DNA from: a virus
Virus record (IMG/VR): IMGVR_UViG_3300046376_000226
Location: 1-64,000 of that record
Direction: 5' to 3' (one strand)
DNA: 64,000 bases
Part shown: positions 3,458-21,510 of the stretch, piece after piece
How positions within the stretch are numbered: the first letter of the stretch is position 1
Layout of the letters: each line of letters begins with the position of its first letter
Translations under genes and position numbers: made by a program
Notes under the pieces: generated by a model
Database searches by the model: none
What the model saw: only the letters and a program-made list of their open reading frames with translations
Told to the model about the DNA's origin: nothing

Positions 3458-5272
3458 TCAGACATCCTGAGAGAAGTCGACATACGCGGTTTTTTCCCGG
3501 TGGCCGATGTTGCCTGTGGGCTGTCTCAGCACTGCTCGGTTGCTGCCGAGCATGCTTGCTTTCTCCGGACCGTTAAGCGCACAGATATGGCACATCATGA
3601 CTAAGGCATCCGCGATATCCGGGCTCCAGCCCAACCGATGTCTAAACTCTTTCTTGGGCTCCAGCCGGATCCGGGGCTTACCGCTGGGGCCCTTAGTCGC
3701 GGGCTGATACCGGCGGCCGCTAAGCTCCTTAAAAAGCTGGGCCGTAAGGATCTGGGGATGGAACGCCAGGAACCCGAATTCCAGAAATTTCCGGACTCTT
3801 AGATACATCTCGACCGCGATCCCGTCACAGATCTCGACCGCGAAGTCATGATCATCAGCCAGGATTTTTAAGGGAGTGGCTTCGGCGCCCCACATGACTC
3901 CGCGCACGAGCGGGCTCCATTGCTCGACTAATGCGTCATGCGGGCCGGTGCCGACCCCGGTCCGGTCACAGGCTGTCCATTCCGGGTGAATATGTAAGCC
4001 GGTAAGCCGAGCTTCGATTGAGTTCGCGAGCGCGATGGTGCGCTCCTGAGGCATCTCGTAGTATTGTTCGGCCTGGACACAGTAACGCGGCTTCTTCCAC
4101 AGAGTAGGCTGCCCGTTAATGGGCTGGAACCCGATGGCGCGTCCGTATTTGCCGACAAAGGCAATGATCCGGCCGCCGCCGTCACTGGCTAGATCGATCC
4201 CGGCGCAGCCCACCGTGCGCTGGTCAAAGATGAATTGGCCGACCACCGCTTCCAAAAGCGAGTAAGCAATCAGGGTCGATTGCAGAGCCGAGAGCGGATA
4301 CATGGCCCTGCCAAAGGTCAGGTACTTCGGACTCTGGCCCCCCAGCTCGAGAGCGAACTTTTGGTAACCGTCCCAGGTCAAAAACCCGGGGTAAACCAGC
4401 GTCCGCTCTATCACGTTCTCGCAATCGATCCCATCCAGGCGCAGCACATGCCAGCGCTCGCTCGATACCCATTCCTTGTCGGTATCCAGGTTGAGAGTGG
4501 TCCAGCCGTTCACCGGCTCGGCCAACTGAGCCAGTTTCGAGGTTACATCGCGGGGGTTAGTCGCACAGAAGACTTTTACCGCTTCCGGGCCCCAGGCAGA
4601 GGCCAATAGGTTACTGACCCCCTCCCAAACTCCGCTCGGTATTTCCTCGGCCTCATCAAGAAGAGCCCGCACCCGGCTCATCGCCCCGAAGATCGGGTGC
4701 GGACGTTTTCTCGGGACGGGATGGAATCCTTGGAGCACCCCACGTCCATCTTCGCCCTGTGGGATCGCAACCAAGGTGATTGCTGAGTGCCGGTCCTTGG
4801 GATTAAGGCCCACGAAACCGTCCATCGAAAGCCCGGGTAGGGGCACAATGGCAGCCTGGTAAAGCCGTTGCAGGGTAGAGAACGACTGGCTCTTAGCGTG
4901 GCCGCCGGTCGTCGAAATGATCTTGATCTCGGTATGCTCTGGATCCCGGATCCAATCTAAAAGGGTATAGCAGATCAGGGTATAGGTTTTACCCATGGCG
5001 GCTGCCCCCAGGACGATCATGTTCTGGGTCGAGCGCACGAATTTGAGCAGTTGCTGGACGGCCCTGGGGCCCCCGTTAAAGAGGGCAGGGCCCCAGAGCA
5101 GCATCCCGGCTAGCGCATAGCGCTCCGTATCCAGGAGCCGTTTAACCAGGGCCCAGATCCATGCCTTGGCTTGATCGGGCACCTGGACGCTCGGATCAAT
5201 CTCGGCTACAGCCTTGACGAGTTCTTCGTCAGAGCACTCGCCGCAGGCTCGCCGGAATTCGAGCAGGTCCAT
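3458..5272 (-). CDS. Terminase large subunit
   Basis: 604 residues, the usual length for a large terminase subunit, the motor that pumps DNA through the portal and cuts concatemers. Walker A is GAAAMGKT at about residues 89-96. Walker B with the catalytic glutamate is ALLDEAEE at 203-210. CATNP near 236-240 fits the coupling motif. The C-terminal RNase-H-like nuclease starts with GIDLA around 358-362, continues with CDRTGVGTG and closes with PDIADALVMM. The acidic residues needed for the nuclease are therefore present. The start is preceded by AGAGG. The gene is on the head-gene strand upstream of portal. Confidence 0.95.
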   Translation of the reverse strand: MDLLEFRRACGECSDEELVKAVAEIDPSVQVPDQAKAWIWALVKRLLDTERYALAGMLLWGPALFNGGPRAVQQLLKFVRSTQNMIVLGAAAMGKTYTLICYTLLDWIRDPEHTEIKIISTTGGHAKSQSFSTLQRLYQAAIVPLPGLSMDGFVGLNPKDRHSAITLVAIPQGEDGRGVLQGFHPVPRKRPHPIFGAMSRVRALLDEAEEIPSGVWEGVSNLLASAWGPEAVKVFCATNPRDVTSKLAQLAEPVNGWTTLNLDTDKEWVSSERWHVLRLDGIDCENVIERTLVYPGFLTWDGYQKFALELGGQSPKYLTFGRAMYPLSALQSTLIAYSLLEAVVGQFIFDQRTVGCAGIDLASDGGGRIIAFVGKYGRAIGFQPINGQPTLWKKPRYCVQAEQYYEMPQERTIALANSIEARLTGLHIHPEWTACDRTGVGTGPHDALVEQWSPLVRGVMWGAEATPLKILADDHDFAVEICDGIAVEMYLRVRKFLEFGFLAFHPQILTAQLFKELSGRRYQPATKGPSGKPRIRLEPKKEFRHRLGWSPDIADALVMMCHICALNGPEKASMLGSNRAVLRQPTGNIGHREKTAYVDFSQDV

Positions 5273-11372: not shown

Positions 11373-11712
11373 GGGCTCCATCTCCCTCTATGGTGGCGAC
11401 CTGGGCCGCTTCTTCCTGGTCGATCGCGCCTAAATCCACGGTAAGCCCGGGCACCGGTTTAATGCTTTCCTCGAGCCCTTTCACGTCCAAAAAGAACCCG
11501 CGCCGCTCGTGGTCTTTGTTCCCGACTTCGATGCCGGTCCGTTTCCAGAACCGCACTACCGCGTAGTCTTTTACCCGGACAATCATCTGGCTATTGCGCC
11601 AGCCGATCACTTCTGCCTGGTACTCCTTCACAGAAGCCGGTTCGGGTACCCGGTCAATCCAGCGCACCGTGACCCGTAAAGCGTGGCCGATCGCGAGATC
11701 TTGATGGTTCAT
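11347..11712 (-). CDS. Hypothetical protein
   Basis: 121 residues, beta-rich (ALRVTVRWIDRVP, MIVRVKDYAVVRFW) with an acidic C-terminus. It starts with an ATGA-type overlap with the upstream gene, so it is translated with the recombination block. No family recognised. Confidence 0.6.
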   Translation of the reverse strand: MNHQDLAIGHALRVTVRWIDRVPEPASVKEYQAEVIGWRNSQMIVRVKDYAVVRFWKRTGIEVGNKDHERRGFFLDVKGLEESIKPVPGLTVDLGAIDQEEAAQVATIEGDGAHEPVPALQ

Positions 11713-12602
11713 GCTAGCGCCGCCAGCCCGATTTGCACCACCACTTTCTCGTCCAGGTAATCGATAGCCAGGTTGCCGCCCCGGGCCTCGGCCCGCTCAA
11801 TGACCTTACCGAATGGGGTGGCTGGTCCGATGGCTTGGGACTCAAAGCCCAGGGCTTTAGCAATGCTCCAGCGTTGCTCGATCAGGTAATAGGCCAGGCT
11901 CGCCACTAAATCGTCGTCTTGCTCGGCCCACTTAAGCAGGTCGCGTTCGCTGATCGGTACTCGCAGGTAACGAATGGCGTCAGCCGCCTCGTCTCCGGCC
12001 AGCCGCCGGATCCGTTCCAATGCCGCTTCGCCTTCCTCGGTAAAAGTGACCTCATCGGGTACCCGTTTCTTGCCACTGCCGGTGGCAGGCGCGGCCGCTT
12101 TTTCGCCGTTAGCGTCCCCTGAGTCCAGGTCCAGGTCGGTCTTTACCCCGGTGCGTTCCTTGGCGGCCGCTTTAGCCTGGGCGTCCTCGATCTGGTCGAC
12201 AATGGCTCGGACGCCCCGGCTGGTTAGAGGCTGGCTCCGGCGCGCCTGGGCGTCCAGGATCTGGCCCCAGACCTCAGTCTGGCGTTCGGCATCCAGGCGG
12301 CTCAGCTCGGCGGCCATACTCTCGTTATCGGGCAGCGCCAGGCCCGCTTTTTTAATGCGGTCGACGGTCAGCGAGATCCCGATGATTCGCTCGGTTGAGC
12401 GCGGCTCGAAGGGGAGTGTGGCCGTGATATAGTCAGCCCAGGCTTCGTAGCCCCGCTCTTCATAGAGCTTCTCGCTTTTGATCTTATAAAGCTCGCGCCC
12501 AATAGCGACCGTTGCGTCCTGGGTCCGTTTCAGGTTGGTGGCGATCTTCAGCTCGCATTGCTCGAGTGCCAGCAAACGTTCTTTGGAGGTAAGTTCTTTC
12601 AT
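11709..12602 (-). CDS. Hypothetical protein, helical, phage DUF3102-like N-terminus
   Basis: 297 residues. The N-terminal 120 residues (ATVAIGRELYKIKSEKLY, then GYEAWADYI and RSTERIIGIS) resemble the helical domain of ParB/DUF3102-like phage proteins that contain a helix-turn-helix. A charged linker (residues about 150-185) leads to a second helical domain. It stands directly after the RecT gene and may bind DNA. Exact role unknown. Confidence 0.6.
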   Translation of the reverse strand: MKELTSKERLLALEQCELKIATNLKRTQDATVAIGRELYKIKSEKLYEERGYEAWADYITATLPFEPRSTERIIGISLTVDRIKKAGLALPDNESMAAELSRLDAERQTEVWGQILDAQARRSQPLTSRGVRAIVDQIEDAQAKAAAKERTGVKTDLDLDSGDANGEKAAAPATGSGKKRVPDEVTFTEEGEAALERIRRLAGDEAADAIRYLRVPISERDLLKWAEQDDDLVASLAYYLIEQRWSIAKALGFESQAIGPATPFGKVIERAEARGGNLAIDYLDEKVVVQIGLAALA

Positions 12603-12614
12603 GCCCTTGGGTTC

Positions 12615-13790
12615 CTACCATGGTTTGGCTTGCTTGTGGAATGCGATCGCGGCTTCGAACATCGCATAATCGGCGCGCTGGAGATCGTTAGCCTCATCCC
12701 AGCCTTCCCGCACCTTGGGTAACCACTGGTTCTCGATTACCTGGAGTTCGGCCTGGTTCAGCTCGGAGATTTTGCGCTTGTGATACTTCACGTGCGTTAC
12801 CCCCAGGATCACATGGTCGCGCCAGGGCGGCTCCGGCGGCGCGGCAGGCGGGCTCATATCCAGCTCGTTGTCATCGGGGCTTGGCCCCATCCGTTTCTCG
12901 GCTTTCTGCGGCTCAACTGTTTGCGGCTTAGGCGGCTCTACGGGTTTAGGGGGCAGCTCATGGACAGTAGCCGGTTGAGCTGCTTCTTCTGGGGTAGGCA
13001 ACGGTTTCTCGGGTTGTAACGTGGTCATGTTAGGCGGCAGAGGCGCTTTAGCCAGCTCCGCTTCGCGTTCCCGGTTACGCCGGATCTTTTCCTCGTCCAG
13101 CCCTAAGGTCTCGGTGTCCGTCTCAGCGTCGGTGATGTTACTGTCCAGTTCTTCCCGGATATAGATGTTGGACAACTGGTCAGGGAAGGCACCGCGCAGC
13201 GCTGCTGCTTTGGCGCATTTGCCCAGCATATAGTCGTCCATCTTGGACCAGAACTCTGAGACCTCCCATTGCTTCTTTTCCTGGTTCCAGCTCTGCCCGA
13301 CGTAAGCGTGCCAGCGGGCGATCCCGATCTCGGGGTGCGCCCGGTGCCGGTGATGGACGATTGCTCGAGCGGCGGCAGGCGCGTTCTCGAATAGCCATTC
13401 GGTCAGCCATTTAACTTCGCCGGTCCCTTCCTCCGGAGGACCCGCCCAGGCGATCTCGCACCCGTTGTAGTCGCCGGTCCGGGTGGCTACGGCCGTCAGG
13501 CCCATGATGCCGGTGACGATCACCAGCGTAGGCACCTTTTTCGTATTACCGTTCTCGTCGCGCACCTTTTGATAACGTCGGGTGGCATAGATCTGTTTAG
13601 TAAACGGATCCAATTTGGTACGCTGACAGACGCGGATAAAACTCTCAGCCTCGTCCTCGGGGAACTTGGCGAGCATCGTTCTTTTCAGTAACTCGACCTC
13701 TTCTTTGGACAGGAAATCGGGCATCGGGGAGAACTGTGGGGTGTAGGTTTGGGCTATAGGATAGGATTGCTCCTGTGGGGCGAGATTCAT
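12615..13790 (-). CDS. recT: RecT/Bet family single-strand annealing protein
   Basis: 391 residues. Diagnostic stretches are RTKLDPFTKQIYA near residue 60, GIMGLTAVATRTGDYNGCE near 95-115, and the KCAKAAALRGAFPDQLSNIY motif near 205-225, as in Red-beta/RecT. These proteins anneal complementary strands during phage recombination and replication. The C-terminal 150 residues are a Pro/Glu-rich linker followed by a small helical domain, longer than in Red-beta. The stop overlaps nothing, but the start overlaps the coiled-coil gene upstream by 4 bp. No obvious RecE-type exonuclease is adjacent. Confidence 0.92.
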   Translation of the reverse strand: MNLAPQEQSYPIAQTYTPQFSPMPDFLSKEEVELLKRTMLAKFPEDEAESFIRVCQRTKLDPFTKQIYATRRYQKVRDENGNTKKVPTLVIVTGIMGLTAVATRTGDYNGCEIAWAGPPEEGTGEVKWLTEWLFENAPAAARAIVHHRHRAHPEIGIARWHAYVGQSWNQEKKQWEVSEFWSKMDDYMLGKCAKAAALRGAFPDQLSNIYIREELDSNITDAETDTETLGLDEEKIRRNREREAELAKAPLPPNMTTLQPEKPLPTPEEAAQPATVHELPPKPVEPPKPQTVEPQKAEKRMGPSPDDNELDMSPPAAPPEPPWRDHVILGVTHVKYHKRKISELNQAELQVIENQWLPKVREGWDEANDLQRADYAMFEAAIAFHKQAKPW

Positions 13791-14620
13791 AAGAGACCTT
13801 TGGCGTTAGCTTTCACTGATACATTGATAGAGCGTTTGACCTGGATCCCGGGCAGGGAGGGCGTGCAGTTGGGATCGATCGCTAATTGAGCCCGGACACT
13901 ATCCTGGCAAGCCTGGATATTCAGTTCCCAGCGCAGGAGCCCCAGGCACCCGGCTCGGACAGTTTCGCCCAAGTTAAGCAGCTTAAACTCGAAAGGATGA
14001 TCTACCCGGCCGGACGGCACCAGGCCCCGCCTAGGTTGATCCGCGCCGAGGTTAGCGACTTCCATGGCCATCTCTTTGGCTAGTTGCTCCTGGGCTGCGA
14101 CTAACATCTGGGCCTGGGCCTCGGCCTGCGCTTTAATTCGAGCCGCTTCATCTAAAGCCGCCCGGGCTTTCTCCTCGGCTGCTTCCTGGGCAGCCAGAGC
14201 CGCGCGAATTTTAGCGTCATGGGCTTCTCGTTCCCGGGCCAGAGCCTCGGCGTGTTTGCGATCTTGCTCTTTCTGGCGCGCCTCCAGCTCGGCTACGTAA
14301 GCATTCAGGAGCCCCAGGATCCGTTTGTGCTCGGCGCCGACAGAGTCACCGATCAGTCGCGCCTGTTCGTTGATTTGCTCATTAATGCTTTTAAACGGTT
14401 CCTGGGCTCCCTTACGGCCTTTGTCGATTTCGTTCAGGAACGCTTTGAGCTGGCCCGCCAGCTGTTGGGCCGTGGCGAAACTGGCGCTGTCAAAGACCGA
14501 CACAAACCCAGAGGTGCGATTTAGGAGTGCGTCAGCCCGCTTCTGATCCTTGGGGTTTACCCGGACCTGGACACTCTGGACGACAAGGGGTTGATCCCCA
14601 TAGTACGGAGTCAATTCCAT
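13787..14620 (-). CDS. Coiled-coil protein partnered with RecT
   Basis: 277 residues. A long coiled coil spans about residues 60-185 (repeated Ala/Glu/Lys heptads such as EEKARAALDEAARIKAQAEA). It is followed by a compact C-terminal domain. Proteins of this layout are common next to phage recT genes and may support the annealase. The ATGA-type junction with recT implies coupled translation. Confidence 0.7.
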   Translation of the reverse strand: MELTPYYGDQPLVVQSVQVRVNPKDQKRADALLNRTSGFVSVFDSASFATAQQLAGQLKAFLNEIDKGRKGAQEPFKSINEQINEQARLIGDSVGAEHKRILGLLNAYVAELEARQKEQDRKHAEALAREREAHDAKIRAALAAQEAAEEKARAALDEAARIKAQAEAQAQMLVAAQEQLAKEMAMEVANLGADQPRRGLVPSGRVDHPFEFKLLNLGETVRAGCLGLLRWELNIQACQDSVRAQLAIDPNCTPSLPGIQVKRSINVSVKANAKGLL

Positions 14621-16710: not shown

Positions 16711-16917
16711 TTATCTTAGATTATTAAAAAAGGGTATGGTTGTGATCTGGTAGTTTCCCACTGGATGGGTTTCAATCCAGGTCCGGGCCGCTAGTTCGCT
16801 CGAAAAGCCGAGCATGGCGAAATAGACGCCAGGGAAAGTGGGACTTTCCCTTTCCACCAGGTAGACGGTCTGGCAGACCGTCGCGATATCGTAGTTGAGC
16901 AGTGAATCAGTTTTCAT
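16711..16917 (-). CDS. Hypothetical small protein
   Basis: 68 residues, alpha/beta (TVCQTVYLVERE, VYFAMLGFSSELAARTWIET). It is the first gene after the Nop-like gene and has a promoter-like element about 190 bp upstream, leaving a long structured leader. No family recognised. Confidence 0.6.
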   Translation of the reverse strand: MKTDSLLNYDIATVCQTVYLVERESPTFPGVYFAMLGFSSELAARTWIETHPVGNYQITTIPFFNNLR

Positions 16918-16925
16918 TTTAGGAA

Positions 16926-16972
16926 AGTCCCGAGCAGGGTTCCCACCTGCGTCTCCCGGCGTCAGCCGGACT
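16926..16972 (-). ncRNA. Three-way-junction or tRNA-like RNA in a 5' leader
   Basis: On the minus strand AGTCC (16972-16968) pairs with GGACT (16930-16926). Between them are a short GGC-TGAC-GCC hairpin and a 5-bp stem GCAGG/CCTGC with a 7-nt loop. The loop and stem sizes resemble tRNA arms, but no acceptor or D-arm fits. It sits directly before the start codon of 16711-16917. It may be a cis-regulatory RNA or a decayed tRNA. Confidence 0.3.
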
Positions 16973-17108
16973 ATTTTACGCTTTATCCCAGTCTCCGGTC
17001 GAAGGCTCCCAAGATTCTCTATTCTGCGTAGCTACTGCATTTCGATACGTCTCAGTGTTGCAACGTGCCTCGAGTCGGTGACCGGCTCAAAACTATCGGA
17101 ACGCCACT

Positions 17109-17146
17109 AGCCTAAGGCCGGACATTTGAATTGTCAAGGGCTAATC
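17109..17146 (-). promoter_or_regulatory. Promoter-like module 1
   Basis: Minus strand: TTGATTAGCCC, then TTGACA (17137-17132), a 17-bp spacer starting ATTCAAA, and TAGGCT at -10. TTGACA is the perfect -35 consensus. The element's TGA is also the stop codon of the Nop-like gene. Five relatives lie between 22.2 and 26.9 kb. Here the next ATG is 190 bp away, unlike the others. Confidence 0.55.
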
Positions 17147-17960
17147 AATTAGGAGGGGGAATGATGCCGTCATGTCCCAGAACCTGCCCTACGTAAGGTC
17201 CTCTCACCGGCAGGCCGCGCGCCTTCCTACCCTCTCCCCAGTAGTGGACCAGGAAAATTTTGACGGCGCGGCGGCGCGCCTTGTTGTCGATGTGAGCGTC
17301 AGAGAGCTTACCCTCCAGTAGCCTGGTTTTCGTAACCGTGTCGTCCCGCCAGTTCTTGGTTGCGAGCAGCTCGGCCGCCGCTTTTTTGTAGTGGCCGGAC
17401 TCATTGCGCCGGATCTCCTCGGCCTTGAACTCCCGATACAAGCCGCCGTAAAAACATTCCTCCTGCCCCGAAAATTTGACAAACGAATCGCCAATTTTCC
17501 AGCAGAGGGTCTTCAGCCGGGAGTTGTATTGCAGTTTCTCGCCTTTGATCCGGCGATCGAAGCCGGGAGCCAAGCCCGCAAACTTCCAGAGCGCCGATGG
17601 ACTGTTCGCTTTGCTAATGTCGATATGCGCGGCTAAGCCAGCTGCTAGGACCGGGCCGATACCGTACTGAGAGTAAGCCCAGCGGGATTCTACCGGCGCA
17701 TCGCTCTCTACCCATTTCTGCAACTTAGCCTGGATAAGCGCCTCGCCAAAATGCAAGTACTCAAAGAACCAGGCATCGAGATCCCGTGGCTCTTCCGTTC
17801 GTTTTTTGGCGGCATGCCGTTTCCGGTGCTCCTGACAGTCGTAATATAGTTCGACGATTCGGGCCACACTTGAGGCTTCGATTTCGTAGGCTTTTACAAT
17901 CTCATTGATTAGGTCATTGCGCGCTAGTTTGACTAGTTCCTTGTGTTGTTCTTTTTTCAT
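17145..17960 (-). CDS. Nop-domain TIGR-associated (Tas-like) protein, nuclease-free
   Basis: 271 residues. Residues 98-160 match the C-terminal domain of IS110/IS116/IS902 transposases: YGIGPVLAAGLAAHID at 99-114, WKFAGLAPG at 125-133, then LQYNSRLKTLCWKIGDSF. That domain is related to the Nop domain of box C/D snoRNP proteins and of Tas proteins. The N-terminal 95 residues are helical, charged and probably coiled. The IS110 DEDD/RuvC-like nuclease domain is absent and no HNH motif is present, so it corresponds to the nuclease-free Tas form. The ATG lies inside a degenerate copy of the array repeat, so array and gene touch. Expected role: bind 36-nt guide RNAs from the array and find DNA. The alternative of a truncated IS110 transposase is less likely because of the array. 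Confidence 0.85.
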   Translation of the reverse strand: MKKEQHKELVKLARNDLINEIVKAYEIEASSVARIVELYYDCQEHRKRHAAKKRTEEPRDLDAWFFEYLHFGEALIQAKLQKWVESDAPVESRWAYSQYGIGPVLAAGLAAHIDISKANSPSALWKFAGLAPGFDRRIKGEKLQYNSRLKTLCWKIGDSFVKFSGQEECFYGGLYREFKAEEIRRNESGHYKKAAAELLATKNWRDDTVTKTRLLEGKLSDAHIDNKARRRAVKIFLVHYWGEGRKARGLPVRGPYVGQVLGHDGIIPPPN

Positions 17961-20171
17961 TCGCTCTTTCGCTATGGGTGTCTCTGTTTCGCTGGCTCGC
18001 TCATTCCGTATTGGGTGTCTCTTTCTTTTTGGCTCGCTCCTATGCTATGGGCGTCTCGGTTTCGCTGGCTCGCTAATTCATGATGGGTGCCTCTATCTTT
18101 TTGGCTCGCTAATTTGTTATGGGCGTCTCGTATCTACTGACTCGCTCATTCGCTGTGGGTGCCTCGTTCTTATTGGCTCGCTTCCGCTCCTGGGGCGTCT
18201 CTGGATTCGCGGCTCGCTCGTTTACGGTGGATGTTTTTTGGTATGTGGCTCGCTCCATTGAAGTGGCTGACGCTCTTCCAACATGACTCGCTCACGGCTT
18301 TCGGATGTCTCGCGAACAATGACTCGCTCCATTGAACTGGTTGTCTCTTTCATCATGGCTCGCTCGTACGCTCTGGATATCTCTCTTTTAGCGGCTCGCT
18401 CATTTTCGATGGGTGGCTCAGCTGCTCTGACTCGCTCGCGTATCGTGGATGGCTCGTGGGCAGCGGCTCGCTCGCACTCTCTGGTTGTCTTGTGGTTCAG
18501 GGCTCGCTCGCTGCTGATGGGTGTCTCATATGGTGTGGCTCGCTCGCGGCCCTTGGTCGTCTCATTAATTTTGGCTCGCTCTTTTGTGGTGAGTGTTTTT
18601 CCTTTTGCATGGCTCGCTCGTTCATCACGGTTATCTCTCGTAGAGTGGCTCGCTCCTGTCTGTTGGGTGCCTCTTAAACCTTGGCTACTGCATTCCTCCG
18701 CTTGCGATGTATGGGGTTCTCTATCCGTTCGACTCGCTCCTCGTCTTTTGGATATCTCGTCAGGGCTGGCTCGCTCTCACCTTTTGGGGCTCTTCATCGA
18801 CAATGGCTCGTTCCCCGGCTTTGGGTGTCTTTTACGGATTGACTCGCTCATCTTTAAGGTTGTGACTCAATGGTCATGGCTCGCTTCTTATTTCTTGGGT
18901 GTCTCTTGCCAGTTGGCTCGCTCCTAGAATATGTGGCTCTGTTCGGTTCCCTTGGCTCGCTCTCATGCGATGGGGTTCTCTCACCATACGGCTCGCTATT
19001 CCGTCTCTGGGCGTCTCCGGTATTGTGGCTCGCTATTGTCCAATGGGCGTCTTATGGATTCTGGCTCGCTTCTCATTGCTGGTTGTCTCGTATTGCTCGG
19101 CTCGCTCCAACTTAATGGGTGCCTCATCTGCTTGGCTCGCTCTCTTCGCGCGGTTATCTACAATCGCATGGCTCGCTCATCCGCGATGGGTTGCTCTTTC
19201 TGAATGGCTCGCTCCCATGCCTTGGGTATCTCACTTTGCTTGGCTCGCTCTTGCGTTATGGGTTGCTCGTCATGGATGGCTCGCTCATTCATTTTGGGAC
19301 TCTCTTTTGCCATGGCTCGCTCTTTACATCGGTGGGATAGCTCTTCTGATTTGACTCGCTCGTTCTGGTTGGATGGCTCATCAGGGTTGGCTCGCTCTTC
19401 CGTCTCAGGGTTTCTGTTTTCTCATGACTCGCTCTATTTGAATGGGTGCCTCTACAACCGTGACTCGCTCGCCTATTATGGGGTGACGTCCTCTTGATTG
19501 ACTCGCTCTCTCACTTTGGGTTTCTTGCTTGGCGCGGCTCGCTTAAGCTCTATGGGTTTCTCCTTGGTGTTGGCTCGCTCATTGTGCTTGGATGGCTACC
19601 GAATCAAGGCTCGCTTTCTTTTCTTGGATATCTCTCGATTAATGACTCGCTCCTCTCAATTGGGTGACTCTTCGAGAATGGCTCGCTAGTTTATCCTGGG
19701 GTTGCTCTTCTTGTAGTGGCTCGCTTTGTTTTCGCGTGGATGATTCACCTTCTGTGGCTCGCTCTTCATTTATGGGGTTCTCACGCAGGCTGGCTCGCTC
19801 GCACATGTTGGGTATGGGTAATCTCGCGTAGTCCGGCTCGCTCCAATGATTTGGGGTTCTCTATCGCTCTGGCTCGCTCCCGCTCTGTGGATGGCTCGTT
19901 ACCTATTGGCTCGCTTGTGATTCATGGGCGTCTTGCACCATTTGGCTAGCTCCTTTCGAATGGGCTCCTCAAGTTTCATGGCTCGCTTGTATATTGTGGG
20001 ATTACTCCGAGGGCTTGGCTCGCTTTACAGACGTGGGTTGCTCCGGGTTCCTGGCTCGCTCGTGACATATGGGCGTCTCGTACCTATTGGCTCGCTCGTT
20101 TATCCTGGGTTGCTCCTAATTGATGGCTCCGCTCGTTCGGCGACGGTTGTCTTTTGGGGCTCGGCTCGCTC
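17958..20171. repeat. TIGR array: 60 units with dual 9-nt spacers
   Basis: On the plus strand each unit reads GGCTCGCTC, variable 9, GGGTGTCTC-like, variable 9. I counted 61 copies of the first repeat (starts 17958, 17994, 18031, 18067 ... 20125, 20163) and thus 60 units; 40 are exactly 36 bp, the rest 35-48 (48 at 18683, 43 at 19792). GGCTCGCTC is nearly invariant (GACTCGCTC in 11 copies; last base sometimes T or A). The second repeat varies more (GGGCGTCTC, GGGTTGCTC, GGATGGCTC) but keeps GG at the start and mostly CTC at the end. Spacers are almost all different. This matches published TIGR arrays (edge repeat, spacer A, loop repeat, spacer B; 36-nt tigRNAs). The transcribed strand is not settled: minus would run into the Tas-like gene. 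It is not CRISPR: repeats are 9 bp and no cas genes exist. Confidence 0.93.
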
Positions 20172-20407
20172 TCCGAAAACTTCGTAGAGCTTGCCGCCAA
20201 AAGACAGGTCATTTTGATTGGTTTGGACCCAATCATATTCTCTGATAATTACCATAAAAAATGCCCTTTTCGACCCCCGCTTTAAACGCACCAGGTTGAC
20301 CGCAGGCGCGTCGCAAGGCCGAGCAGGTGCATTGGACCTGTGCGCAACGTTGCGCATCCTGGGGCATCCTCGAGCGTTTGTGGGCCATAGCCAAATGATG
20401 ACATGTG
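20172..20407 (-). promoter_or_regulatory. Array-distal flank, candidate leader
   Basis: A 236-bp stretch beyond the last repeat and before the next gene. It holds an AT-rich segment (20215-20265), the palindrome at 20341-20356, and a short minus-strand frame from ATG 20255 (MVIIREYDWVQTNQNDLSFG...) that runs on into the first two array units as ERAEP repeats before stopping. If the array is read on the minus strand, its promoter must be here. No convincing -35/-10 pair was found. The short frame may be the remnant of a gene. Confidence 0.4.
20341..20356. repeat. 16-bp perfect palindrome of the dispersed element
   Basis: TGCGCAACGTTGCGCA, the left half of the dispersed intergenic element, here without the GGCGCGCC-centred part. 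It lies in the array-distal flank. Confidence 0.75.
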
Positions 20408-20515
20408 TCAGGGTTTGCGCCTGGTTAAGTACTCCGAAAGCGCGATCAGCGTGAAGTACAAGATGATCGCCAAGGCACCACTCAAGAACCCTAGAAGGAA
20501 AGTGGTTACATCCAT
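20408..20515 (-). CDS. 35-residue membrane peptide
   Basis: Frame beginning MDVTTFLLGFLSGALAIILY, one membrane helix (about residues 5-27) followed by a short charged tail (SEYLTRRKP). It follows the upstream gene by 2 bp, so it is probably cotranslated. It is the last gene before the array flank. Function unknown. Confidence 0.45.
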   Translation of the reverse strand: MDVTTFLLGFLSGALAIILYFTLIALSEYLTRRKP

Positions 20516-20517
20516 AC

Positions 20518-20745
20518 CTATTGGACTAGCAGGTTCCGGATAATGACTCCAGCGCAGTCGCGCGCTGAGACGTGGGTGCCAGCCGGTGCGTTATCCTGGA
20601 GCGTCTGCCGCCAGTCCTCTGCCATGACGGCCGACAGCAGTGCCTGACCCTCTGAGCCCTTGGTCCAGGCGCTTGCTATCTGGATGATATAATGCCGGAC
20701 CCGTTCCCAGTACCGGGCATCGCGGTCGTAAACAGTCGCTTTCAT
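20518..20745 (-). CDS. Hypothetical small protein
   Basis: 75 residues from MKATVYDRDARYWERV; the start is fixed by an ATGA overlap with the upstream gene. Helical, with no recognised family. Last of a run of overlapping small genes that starts at 22279. Confidence 0.6.
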   Translation of the reverse strand: MKATVYDRDARYWERVRHYIIQIASAWTKGSEGQALLSAVMAEDWRQTLQDNAPAGTHVSARDCAGVIIRNLLVQ

Positions 20746-20960
20746 TTTGCCGCCTCGCACCATTTGTCAATGACCCGTTGGGCGGCTGCTATGGCCTGCC
20801 CGAGGCTTTCATAGTAGCCAGTGGTCTGGCCATCGGCGTGAGCCATCCAGGTGAGCACTCCCTGACTATAATAGGAGTGGATGCCGATCTCGTGCTGCCG
20901 GTATTCGATTACGTGATCGTATCGGACCAGCCGGTCGTTAAGTCTAAATGCGTACCTCAT
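20742..20960 (-). CDS. Hypothetical small protein
   Basis: 72 residues from MRYAFRLNDRLVRYDHVIEY; ATGA overlap with the preceding stop selects this start. Beta-rich first half with a helical tail (LGQAIAAAQRVIDKWCEAAK), a layout shared by several small proteins in this region (compare 25125-25343). Confidence 0.6.
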   Translation of the reverse strand: MRYAFRLNDRLVRYDHVIEYRQHEIGIHSYYSQGVLTWMAHADGQTTGYYESLGQAIAAAQRVIDKWCEAAK

Positions 20961-21169
20961 AGTGGAATCCATTTACCCTGGACTAAGCGAGCGGCGGCTT
21001 TGATGTCGCCGTAGCCTTTGCGCGAATCATACGTCCGGACTTCGCCGCCGTTAGCCAGGCGGACGCCAATGGTGCTCCCTTTGACGAAGATCACCTCGGC
21101 GGGAGTATTGTTGCCTCCCTTACCGGTGACTAGAACGTAGTCACCGGCTCGTAGCGTGCTCACTTTCAT
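20957..21169 (-). CDS. Hypothetical small beta-rich protein
   Basis: 70 residues from MKVSTLRAGDYVLVTGKGGN, probably a small SH3-like barrel (AGDYVLVTG, PAEVIFVKGSTIGVRL). ATGA overlap with the upstream stop. Function unknown. Confidence 0.6.
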   Translation of the reverse strand: MKVSTLRAGDYVLVTGKGGNNTPAEVIFVKGSTIGVRLANGGEVRTYDSRKGYGDIKAAARLVQGKWIPL

Positions 21170-21510
21170 CGGGAGAGAGCGTCGTAAGTACTTGGGCTTT
21201 CCCACCGGTCATGAAGTGCGATCGGTTGTTCGCTCGGGAACCGGCTATCACTGGAATAGATGAAGTTCCCGCCAAACATTGGACCCACTAAACCCTTTGG
21301 TTGATAAACTGGTTCAGCGTGCAGATAATTTCCTCGGCGCACCAAGCGCACAGGAGGTCGTTCTGGGTTGGGTGCGAAGATCTCAGCCTCTTTACCCAAC
21401 TCGACTAAGGTCACTTCCTCGCACTGGCTGCTGACGCCTCCGTTGCTGCAATCCCAGCCGCATTTGTAGATCAGGCATACGAGCCCTAGCATAGATTCAG
21501 AGTTGCTCAT
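21166..21510 (-). CDS. Hypothetical protein
   Basis: 114 residues with a short hydrophobic N-terminus (MLGLVCLIYKCGWDC) and Cys residues. Overlaps both neighbours by 4 bp. No family recognised. Confidence 0.55.
   Translation of the reverse strand: MSNSESMLGLVCLIYKCGWDCSNGGVSSQCEEVTLVELGKEAEIFAPNPERPPVRLVRRGNYLHAEPVYQPKGLVGPMFGGNFIYSSDSRFPSEQPIALHDRWESPSTYDALSR

What the first reader, a model, noticed from the sequence alone, without database searches (positions are those of the whole stretch)
17958..17993. Start codon of the Tas-like gene lies inside a degenerate array repeat
The first array unit reads CATTCGCTC where the others read GGCTCGCTC. On the gene's strand this is GAGCGA followed by ATG, so the conserved repeat supplies the bases just upstream of the start and its last three bases became the start codon. 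Processing or protein binding at that repeat could therefore control translation, giving autoregulation. Alternatively the array simply grew up to the gene.
Basis: partly seen in the sequence, partly recalled or inferred. Interest (0 to 1): 0.7.

Follow-up and report, generated by a model that had tools for sequence, protein, structure and literature searches.

The report
Guide-RNA array ends at tas start
In this virus an array of short guide RNAs stops exactly where the gene for its own guide-binding protein begins, so cutting out the last guide would also define the start of that gene's message; the layout recurs in related viruses and suggests a testable form of self-control, which nothing here demonstrates.

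Summary
The array's last repeat on the tas strand reads GAGCGA|ATG at 17966-17958, in register 36 nt after the previous repeat. The locus is a phage TIGR-Tas system (Faure 2025, PMC12045711) with a TasA-like protein (profile hits TasR 5e-31, TasH 4e-21). The 'degenerate' repeat is the usual 3' end of a TIGR array, a half edge repeat GAGCG; 88 of 228 related arrays end this way (control 5%). So no repeat was converted into a start codon: a normal array end abuts the gene, one base apart, with no promoter or terminator match between.

Among 192 non-redundant relatives array-gene fusion recurs. 17 of 54 upstream arrays end 6-13 nt before the tas start, usually with GAG at Shine-Dalgarno spacing, often extended to GGAG (12/17 against 52/192 internal repeats). 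46 of 105 downstream arrays begin in or next to the tas stop codon. In this window the half-edge is NOT a usable Shine-Dalgarno. If the repeat is cut at GAGCG^AGCCA, as half-edges imply, tas mRNA would start one base before AUG. Autoregulation is plausible but untested; compact packing is a serious rival. Eight of nine clade relatives carry the array downstream, so the junction looks young here.

The parts
17145..17960 (-). tas gene, 271 aa, TasA-like (solo Nop domain, no RuvC or HNH)
   Evidence: phrog_4285 1.8e-34; PDB profile hits TasR 9mty 5.4e-31 and TasH 21kl 3.9e-21; AlphaFold pLDDT 89.8; Foldseek top hits TasH and TasR
17962..20171 (-). TIGR array, about 57 edge repeats GAGCGAGCCA alternating with loop repeats GAGACACCCA, units about 36 nt, sense = tas strand
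   Evidence: sense from relatives
17962..17966 (-). terminal 3' half edge repeat GAGCG
   Evidence: in register 36 nt after the edge at 18002; half-edge rule
17958..17960 (-). tas start codon ATG, one base after the half-edge
17962..17997 (-). predicted last 36-nt tigRNA AGCCA-GCGAAACA-GAGACACCCA-TAGCGAAA-GAGCG (5+8+10+8+5)
   Evidence: inferred from half-edge boundaries and the published 36-nt tigRNA cut in mid edge repeat
17967..18111 (-). tas-proximal four units = two diverged copies of a 72-nt (two-unit) duplication
   Evidence: spacer matches 13/17 for 18111/18039 and 18075/18002 against a mean of 5.2; TRF period 72
20142..20210 (-). stable hairpin at the distal (5') end of the array, enclosing the first edge and loop repeats
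   Evidence: 121-nt fold -42.9 kcal/mol, z -4.6

Best explanation
The feature is the normal 3' end of a phage TIGR array whose terminal half edge repeat abuts its tas gene with one base between. Array and tas are most likely one transcript (inferred). The last guide must be cut out of it, and half-edges across the family place that cut between GAGCG and AGCCA (inferred from sequence). The same cut would therefore set the 5' end of tas mRNA at about one base before AUG, giving a nearly leaderless message. Tas is required for tigRNA processing in the published TasR system, so maturation of the last guide and expression of tas would be coupled. In most other tight junctions GAG of the half-edge lies in the tas Shine-Dalgarno, so Tas binding or cutting there should lower tas translation (negative feedback). 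In the window there is no Shine-Dalgarno to lose, so the cut might instead permit leaderless initiation. Shown: architecture, register, sense, recurrence. Inferred: co-transcription, cut site, leaderless mRNA. Speculative: regulation and its sign (I give regulation about 0.3).
For: TIGR-Tas membership. Tas strand = array strand in nearly all of 137 relatives. No array-strand promoter or terminator match at the junction, whereas published arrays typically end in a terminator. Terminal edges keep GAGCG, then become random, n=88; 5+8+10+8+5 = 36 nt, the published tigRNA length. Tight junctions (6-13 nt) in 17 of 54 non-redundant upstream arrays, needing at least 14 changes on the Tas tree. Anti-SD pairing at terminal edges -5.9 against -3.5 kcal/mol at internal edges, p=1.9e-4; G before GAG in 12/17 against 52/192, p=5e-4; no such effect in loose junctions. 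The junction persists between Tas proteins about 86% identical (L384/L286).
Against: No RNA data exist. The window's own half-edge is a poor Shine-Dalgarno (-0.9 kcal/mol) with only 3 nt between GAG and ATG, so the negative-feedback form seen in relatives does not carry over directly. Eight of nine clade members have the array downstream. Published processing was shown for downstream arrays expressed in E. coli, not for an array upstream of tas. About 30% of downstream-only tas genes also lack a strong SD, so the window's lack of one is not in itself unusual. The promoter scan covers sigma-70 consensus only.
Confidence: 0.5

Rival explanations
1. Compact packing only. Phage genes and arrays are packed without spare bases; the array end happens to touch the gene, a start codon needs some Shine-Dalgarno, and the purine-rich repeat supplies one where it can. 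No regulation by Tas.
For: Fusion is seen at both ends of tas: 46 of 105 downstream arrays begin in or within 2 nt of the stop codon, where translational control is not expected. Array position flips often (at least 33 changes up/down on the tree). Tight junctions are scattered single events. Loose upstream junctions are commoner (37 of 54) and have a good SD of their own (median -7.4 kcal/mol).
Against: No result here contradicts it. It leaves open what the cut at the terminal half-edge, needed to finish the last guide, does to tas mRNA.
Confidence: 0.4
2. The array grew up to the gene by tandem duplication of two-unit (72-nt) blocks at its tas-proximal end, keeping the terminal half-edge.
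For: The four tas-proximal units are two diverged 72-nt copies (13/17 spacer matches each, mean 5.2). The array is long (57 edges against the 5-15 most often reported).
Against: Duplication inside the array lengthens it but does not explain why the terminal half-edge sits one base from the ATG; internal growth leaves the end where it was.
Confidence: 0.3
3. tas has its own transcription start right at the ATG (a leaderless promoter inside the last unit), independent of array processing.
For: No Shine-Dalgarno at the start; leaderless messages exist in bacteria (PMC9031893, abstract).
Against: No sigma-70-like site on the array strand there.
Confidence: 0.1
4. The real tas start is elsewhere, so the overlap is an annotation artefact.
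For: In some relatives Tas reading frames run through array units (L012/L290 N-terminus, L013 C-terminus).
Against: In the window no other ATG/GTG/TTG lies in frame between the array and the conserved region, and the N-terminal length is like that of L010 and L014.
Confidence: 0.05

Closest known systems
TIGR-TasA systems (Faure et al. 2025, PMC12045711)
   Same: Solo Nop-domain protein next to a dual-repeat array, edge and loop repeats ending in CCA, 36-nt units, truncated edge repeats at the array ends, found in phages.
   Different: The array is unusually long (about 57 repeats against 5-15 most often) and its 3' half-edge runs into the tas start codon and not into a terminator; the paper's main text does not describe sharing of bases between array and start or stop codon (its fig. 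S4 could not be seen).
Salicola phage CGphi29 TIGR-TasH (SpTIGR; PDB 21kl, 9w04)
   Same: Repeats AAGCGAGCCA and AAGACAACCA resemble GAGCGAGCCA and GAGACACCCA; same strand as tas; profile hit E=4e-21.
   Different: HNH domain present; the array lies downstream and ends in a clear terminator hairpin with T-run.
IS110-family transposases (IS621, ISCro4)
   Same: Distant relation of the RNA-binding part (profile 0.0018; Foldseek 0.018).
   Different: No DEDD/RuvC domain in the window's protein; a guide array in place of a single bridge RNA.
Messages whose protein binds its own ribosome-binding site (e.g. T4 gp43, ribosomal proteins; own knowledge)
   Same: A likely binding site of the protein touches the translation start of its gene.
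   Different: Here the site is part of a guide-RNA array and would be cut; binding and regulation are untested.

Membership tests
TIGR-Tas | Nop-domain (Tas) protein | tested here: met
   Profile of 32 relatives hits TasR 9mty 5.4e-31 and TasH 21kl 3.9e-21; model pLDDT 89.8; Foldseek 2.7e-09 and 5.0e-09
TIGR-Tas | Array of two alternating 8-12 nt repeats with about 8-9 nt spacers, about 36-nt period | tested here: met
TIGR-Tas | Box C/D-like motifs shared by edge and loop repeats | tested here: met
   GAGCGAGCCA and GAGACACCCA both begin GA and end CCA; the start motif is GA, not the UG of TasR arrays
TIGR-Tas | Array ends in a 3'-truncated edge repeat | tested here: met
   GAGCG at 17966-17962; 88 of 228 related arrays
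TIGR-Tas | Rho-independent terminator after the array (typical, not universal) | tested here: not met
   No terminator-like site on the array strand in 16900-21300; tas follows directly
TIGR-Tas | Transcription and processing into 36-nt tigRNAs | not testable with these tools
   needs small-RNA sequencing
TIGR-Tas | RNA-guided DNA binding | not testable with these tools
   needs biochemistry
TasA subtype | No HNH or RuvC nuclease domain | tested here: met
   271 aa; Pfam shows only a sub-threshold Transposase_20 match at residues 100-133
IS110 transposase | N-terminal DEDD/RuvC domain | tested here: not met
   absent: no Pfam match, and the model is helical from residue 3 on
Autoregulated leader (protein binds its own RBS) | Protein binds its own mRNA leader and changes its translation | not testable with these tools
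   needs binding and reporter assays

The most novel reading that the evidence does not exclude
TIGR arrays that sit upstream of tas double as its expression switch: the terminal half edge repeat is at once the 3' end of the last guide RNA, the cleavage site that frees tas mRNA, and (in most such lineages) part of its Shine-Dalgarno. Tas level is then set by guide maturation: either the ribosome or the Tas-guide particle owns the site. In the window and in L116 the cut leaves a one-base leader and tas is translated as a nearly leaderless message.
Probability: 0.25. Interest if true: 0.75.

Novelty: new variant of a known kind. Interest (0 to 1): 0.5.

Why it matters
How TIGR guides are cut and how Tas level is matched to guide supply are open questions (the maturation nuclease is unknown, PMC12045711). 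The half-edge statistics give a precise predicted cut (GAGCG^AGCCA) in this clade. Junctions such as this one turn guide processing into something that can be read with a tas-lacZ fusion, so both the processing enzyme and any feedback become easy to test. They also show how guide arrays and coding sequence come to share bases: start, stop and even Tas termini are encoded by array units in relatives.

Tried and rejected
Array sense opposite to tas: rejected (and CGphi29). Start codon carved out of a full repeat: rejected, half-edges are normal. Half-edge as Shine-Dalgarno in the window: rejected for this locus (-0.9 kcal/mol), though it holds for 14 of 17 tight relatives. RNA structure over the start: no excess stability (z -0.18). 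Known RNA family: no Rfam match. Defence-family models: no PADLOC match. Spacer targets in public collections were not pursued: 16-18 bp split targets would give chance hits at that scale. A pattern scan for arrays ending in RTG was made, but none of the 17 tight loci came from it. The searches were seeded partly with tight-junction Tas proteins, so 17/54 is not an unbiased frequency.

Full report
What the locus is. The window is part of a virus record of 74,555 bases. On the minus strand a gene of 271 codons (17960-17145) follows an array of about 57 repeats (20171-17962). The protein matches phrog_4285 at 1.8e-34. A profile of 32 relatives hits the solved TasR (9mty, 5.4e-31) and TasH (21kl, 3.9e-21) and reaches IS621 only at 0.0018. 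The AlphaFold model (pLDDT 89.8) matches TasH and TasR first in the PDB. It lacks a nuclease domain, so it is TasA-like. The array alternates GAGCGAGCCA and GAGACACCCA with about 8-nt spacers and a 36-nt period. This is a TIGR-Tas system as described by Faure et al. 2025 (PMC12045711). Of the twelve related loci found in cellular genomes about seven are Acidobacteriota MAGs or genomes, a hint of the host.

The observation. GAGCGA|ATG is present as described, in exact register with the array. Two corrections follow from relatives. First, sense: edge-repeat chains lie on the tas strand in nearly all of 137 relatives (one distant exception), and in the experimentally studied CGphi29 array the tas strand carries AAGCGAGCCA. 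Second, array ends: in 88 of 228 arrays the last repeat is only GAGCG, with random bases after it (random-position control 5%). The 5-mer was required by the search; the randomness after it was not. The paper states the same rule (5'- and 3'-truncated edge repeats). The window's junction is thus an ordinary array end placed one base before a start codon, without the usual terminator.

A cut site from the half-edges. The two kinds of half-edge meet between positions 5 and 6 (GAGCG^AGCCA): terminal repeats keep GAGCG, first repeats of downstream arrays keep (A)GCCA. AGCCA+8+10+8+GAGCG gives 36 nt, the published length of tigRNAs, which are cut in mid edge repeat. This boundary is inferred from sequence only. 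Applied to the window, the last tigRNA would be 17997-17962 and tas mRNA would begin at 17961, one base before AUG.

Relatives. Among 192 non-redundant Tas genes (90% clusters), 54 have an array directly upstream with a scorable start. In 17 the terminal repeat begins 6-13 nt before the start codon. In these, pairing with the 3' end of 16S rRNA is stronger at the terminal repeat than at internal repeats (mean -5.9 against -3.5 kcal/mol, p=1.9e-4), and G precedes GAG in 12/17 against 52/192 (p=5e-4). Loose junctions with a half-edge show no such effect. The SD energy of the tight set is like that of other tas genes (median -6.5 against -6.35 in downstream-only loci; random ATGs -2.4), with three exceptions: L155, L116 and the window itself (-0.9). 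So in 14 of 17 the half-edge lies in the Shine-Dalgarno, and in the window it does not. The window and L116 have the shortest gap (6 nt, one base after the half-edge) and no Shine-Dalgarno; two cases are too few for a claim, since about 30% of downstream-only tas genes lack a strong one too.

The mirror image is commoner: 46 of 105 downstream arrays begin in or within 2 nt of the tas stop codon, mostly as TAG|CC or TAA|GCC (contexts). In L012/L290 array units run into the tas reading frame at the N-terminus, and in L013 at the C-terminus. Array and gene share bases freely at either end.

Evolution. On a FastTree tree of 152 Tas proteins the tight state needs at least 14 changes and the side of the array at least 33. 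The window's own clade of ten has eight downstream arrays. The four tas-proximal units are two diverged copies of a 72-nt block, so the array has grown near the gene by duplication. The junction is thus a state that arises repeatedly and looks recent here. It does persist in some pairs (L384 and L286, Tas about 86% identical, junction 19/21 bases, though the unit before it is nearly as well kept, 33/36).

How it most likely works. Shown: register, sense, recurrence, SD role in relatives. Inferred: one transcript, since no promoter or terminator match lies between (consensus scan only); the cut site; a one-base leader. Speculative: coupling of Tas level to guide maturation. Published work shows that TasR is needed for processing, in a downstream array. 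If this holds here, cutting at the terminal half-edge removes the ribosome site in SD-type relatives (negative feedback), and in the window would produce a nearly leaderless message, a form that bacteria can translate (PMC9031893, abstract only). Plain compaction explains the anatomy about as well, notably the stop-codon fusions, and I give it 0.4.

Limits. No RNA data. Searches were seeded in part with tight-junction proteins, so frequencies are not unbiased. Start codons were called by rule. The paper's supplementary figures, which may show such junctions, could not be read.

Noticed in passing
window 20142-20210 (-): Very stable hairpin at the distal (5') end of the array (121-nt fold -42.9 kcal/mol, z -4.6) that pairs leader sequence with the first edge and loop repeats; it may shield the first unit or act in transcription.
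   Followed up: partly
window 17962-20171: Array of about 57 edge repeats, far longer than the 5-15 units most often reported for TIGR arrays; several units are 37-43 nt and one stretch (18739-18655) holds a decayed repeat.
   Followed up: partly
L012 and L290 about 3767-3990; L013 about 870-984: The Tas reading frame runs through array units, so array units encode the Tas N-terminal tail (L012...SEP...SNP...) or C-terminal tail (L013).
   Followed up: partly
downstream arrays, e.g. L001:4796-4802, L007, L048: The tas stop codon is shared with or touches the first half edge repeat (TAG|CC, TAA|GCC, TGA|GCC) in 46 of 105 non-redundant loci.
   Followed up: yes
window 11709-14620 (-): RecT-like annealing protein (12615-13790) and an exonuclease-like neighbour (13787-14620, weak match) on the same strand as tas, a likely recombination module.
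   Followed up: no
window 17147-17138 (-): At and just past the tas stop the sequence reads TGATTAGCCC, which could be a relic of a 5' half-edge from a lost downstream array; may be chance.
   Followed up: no
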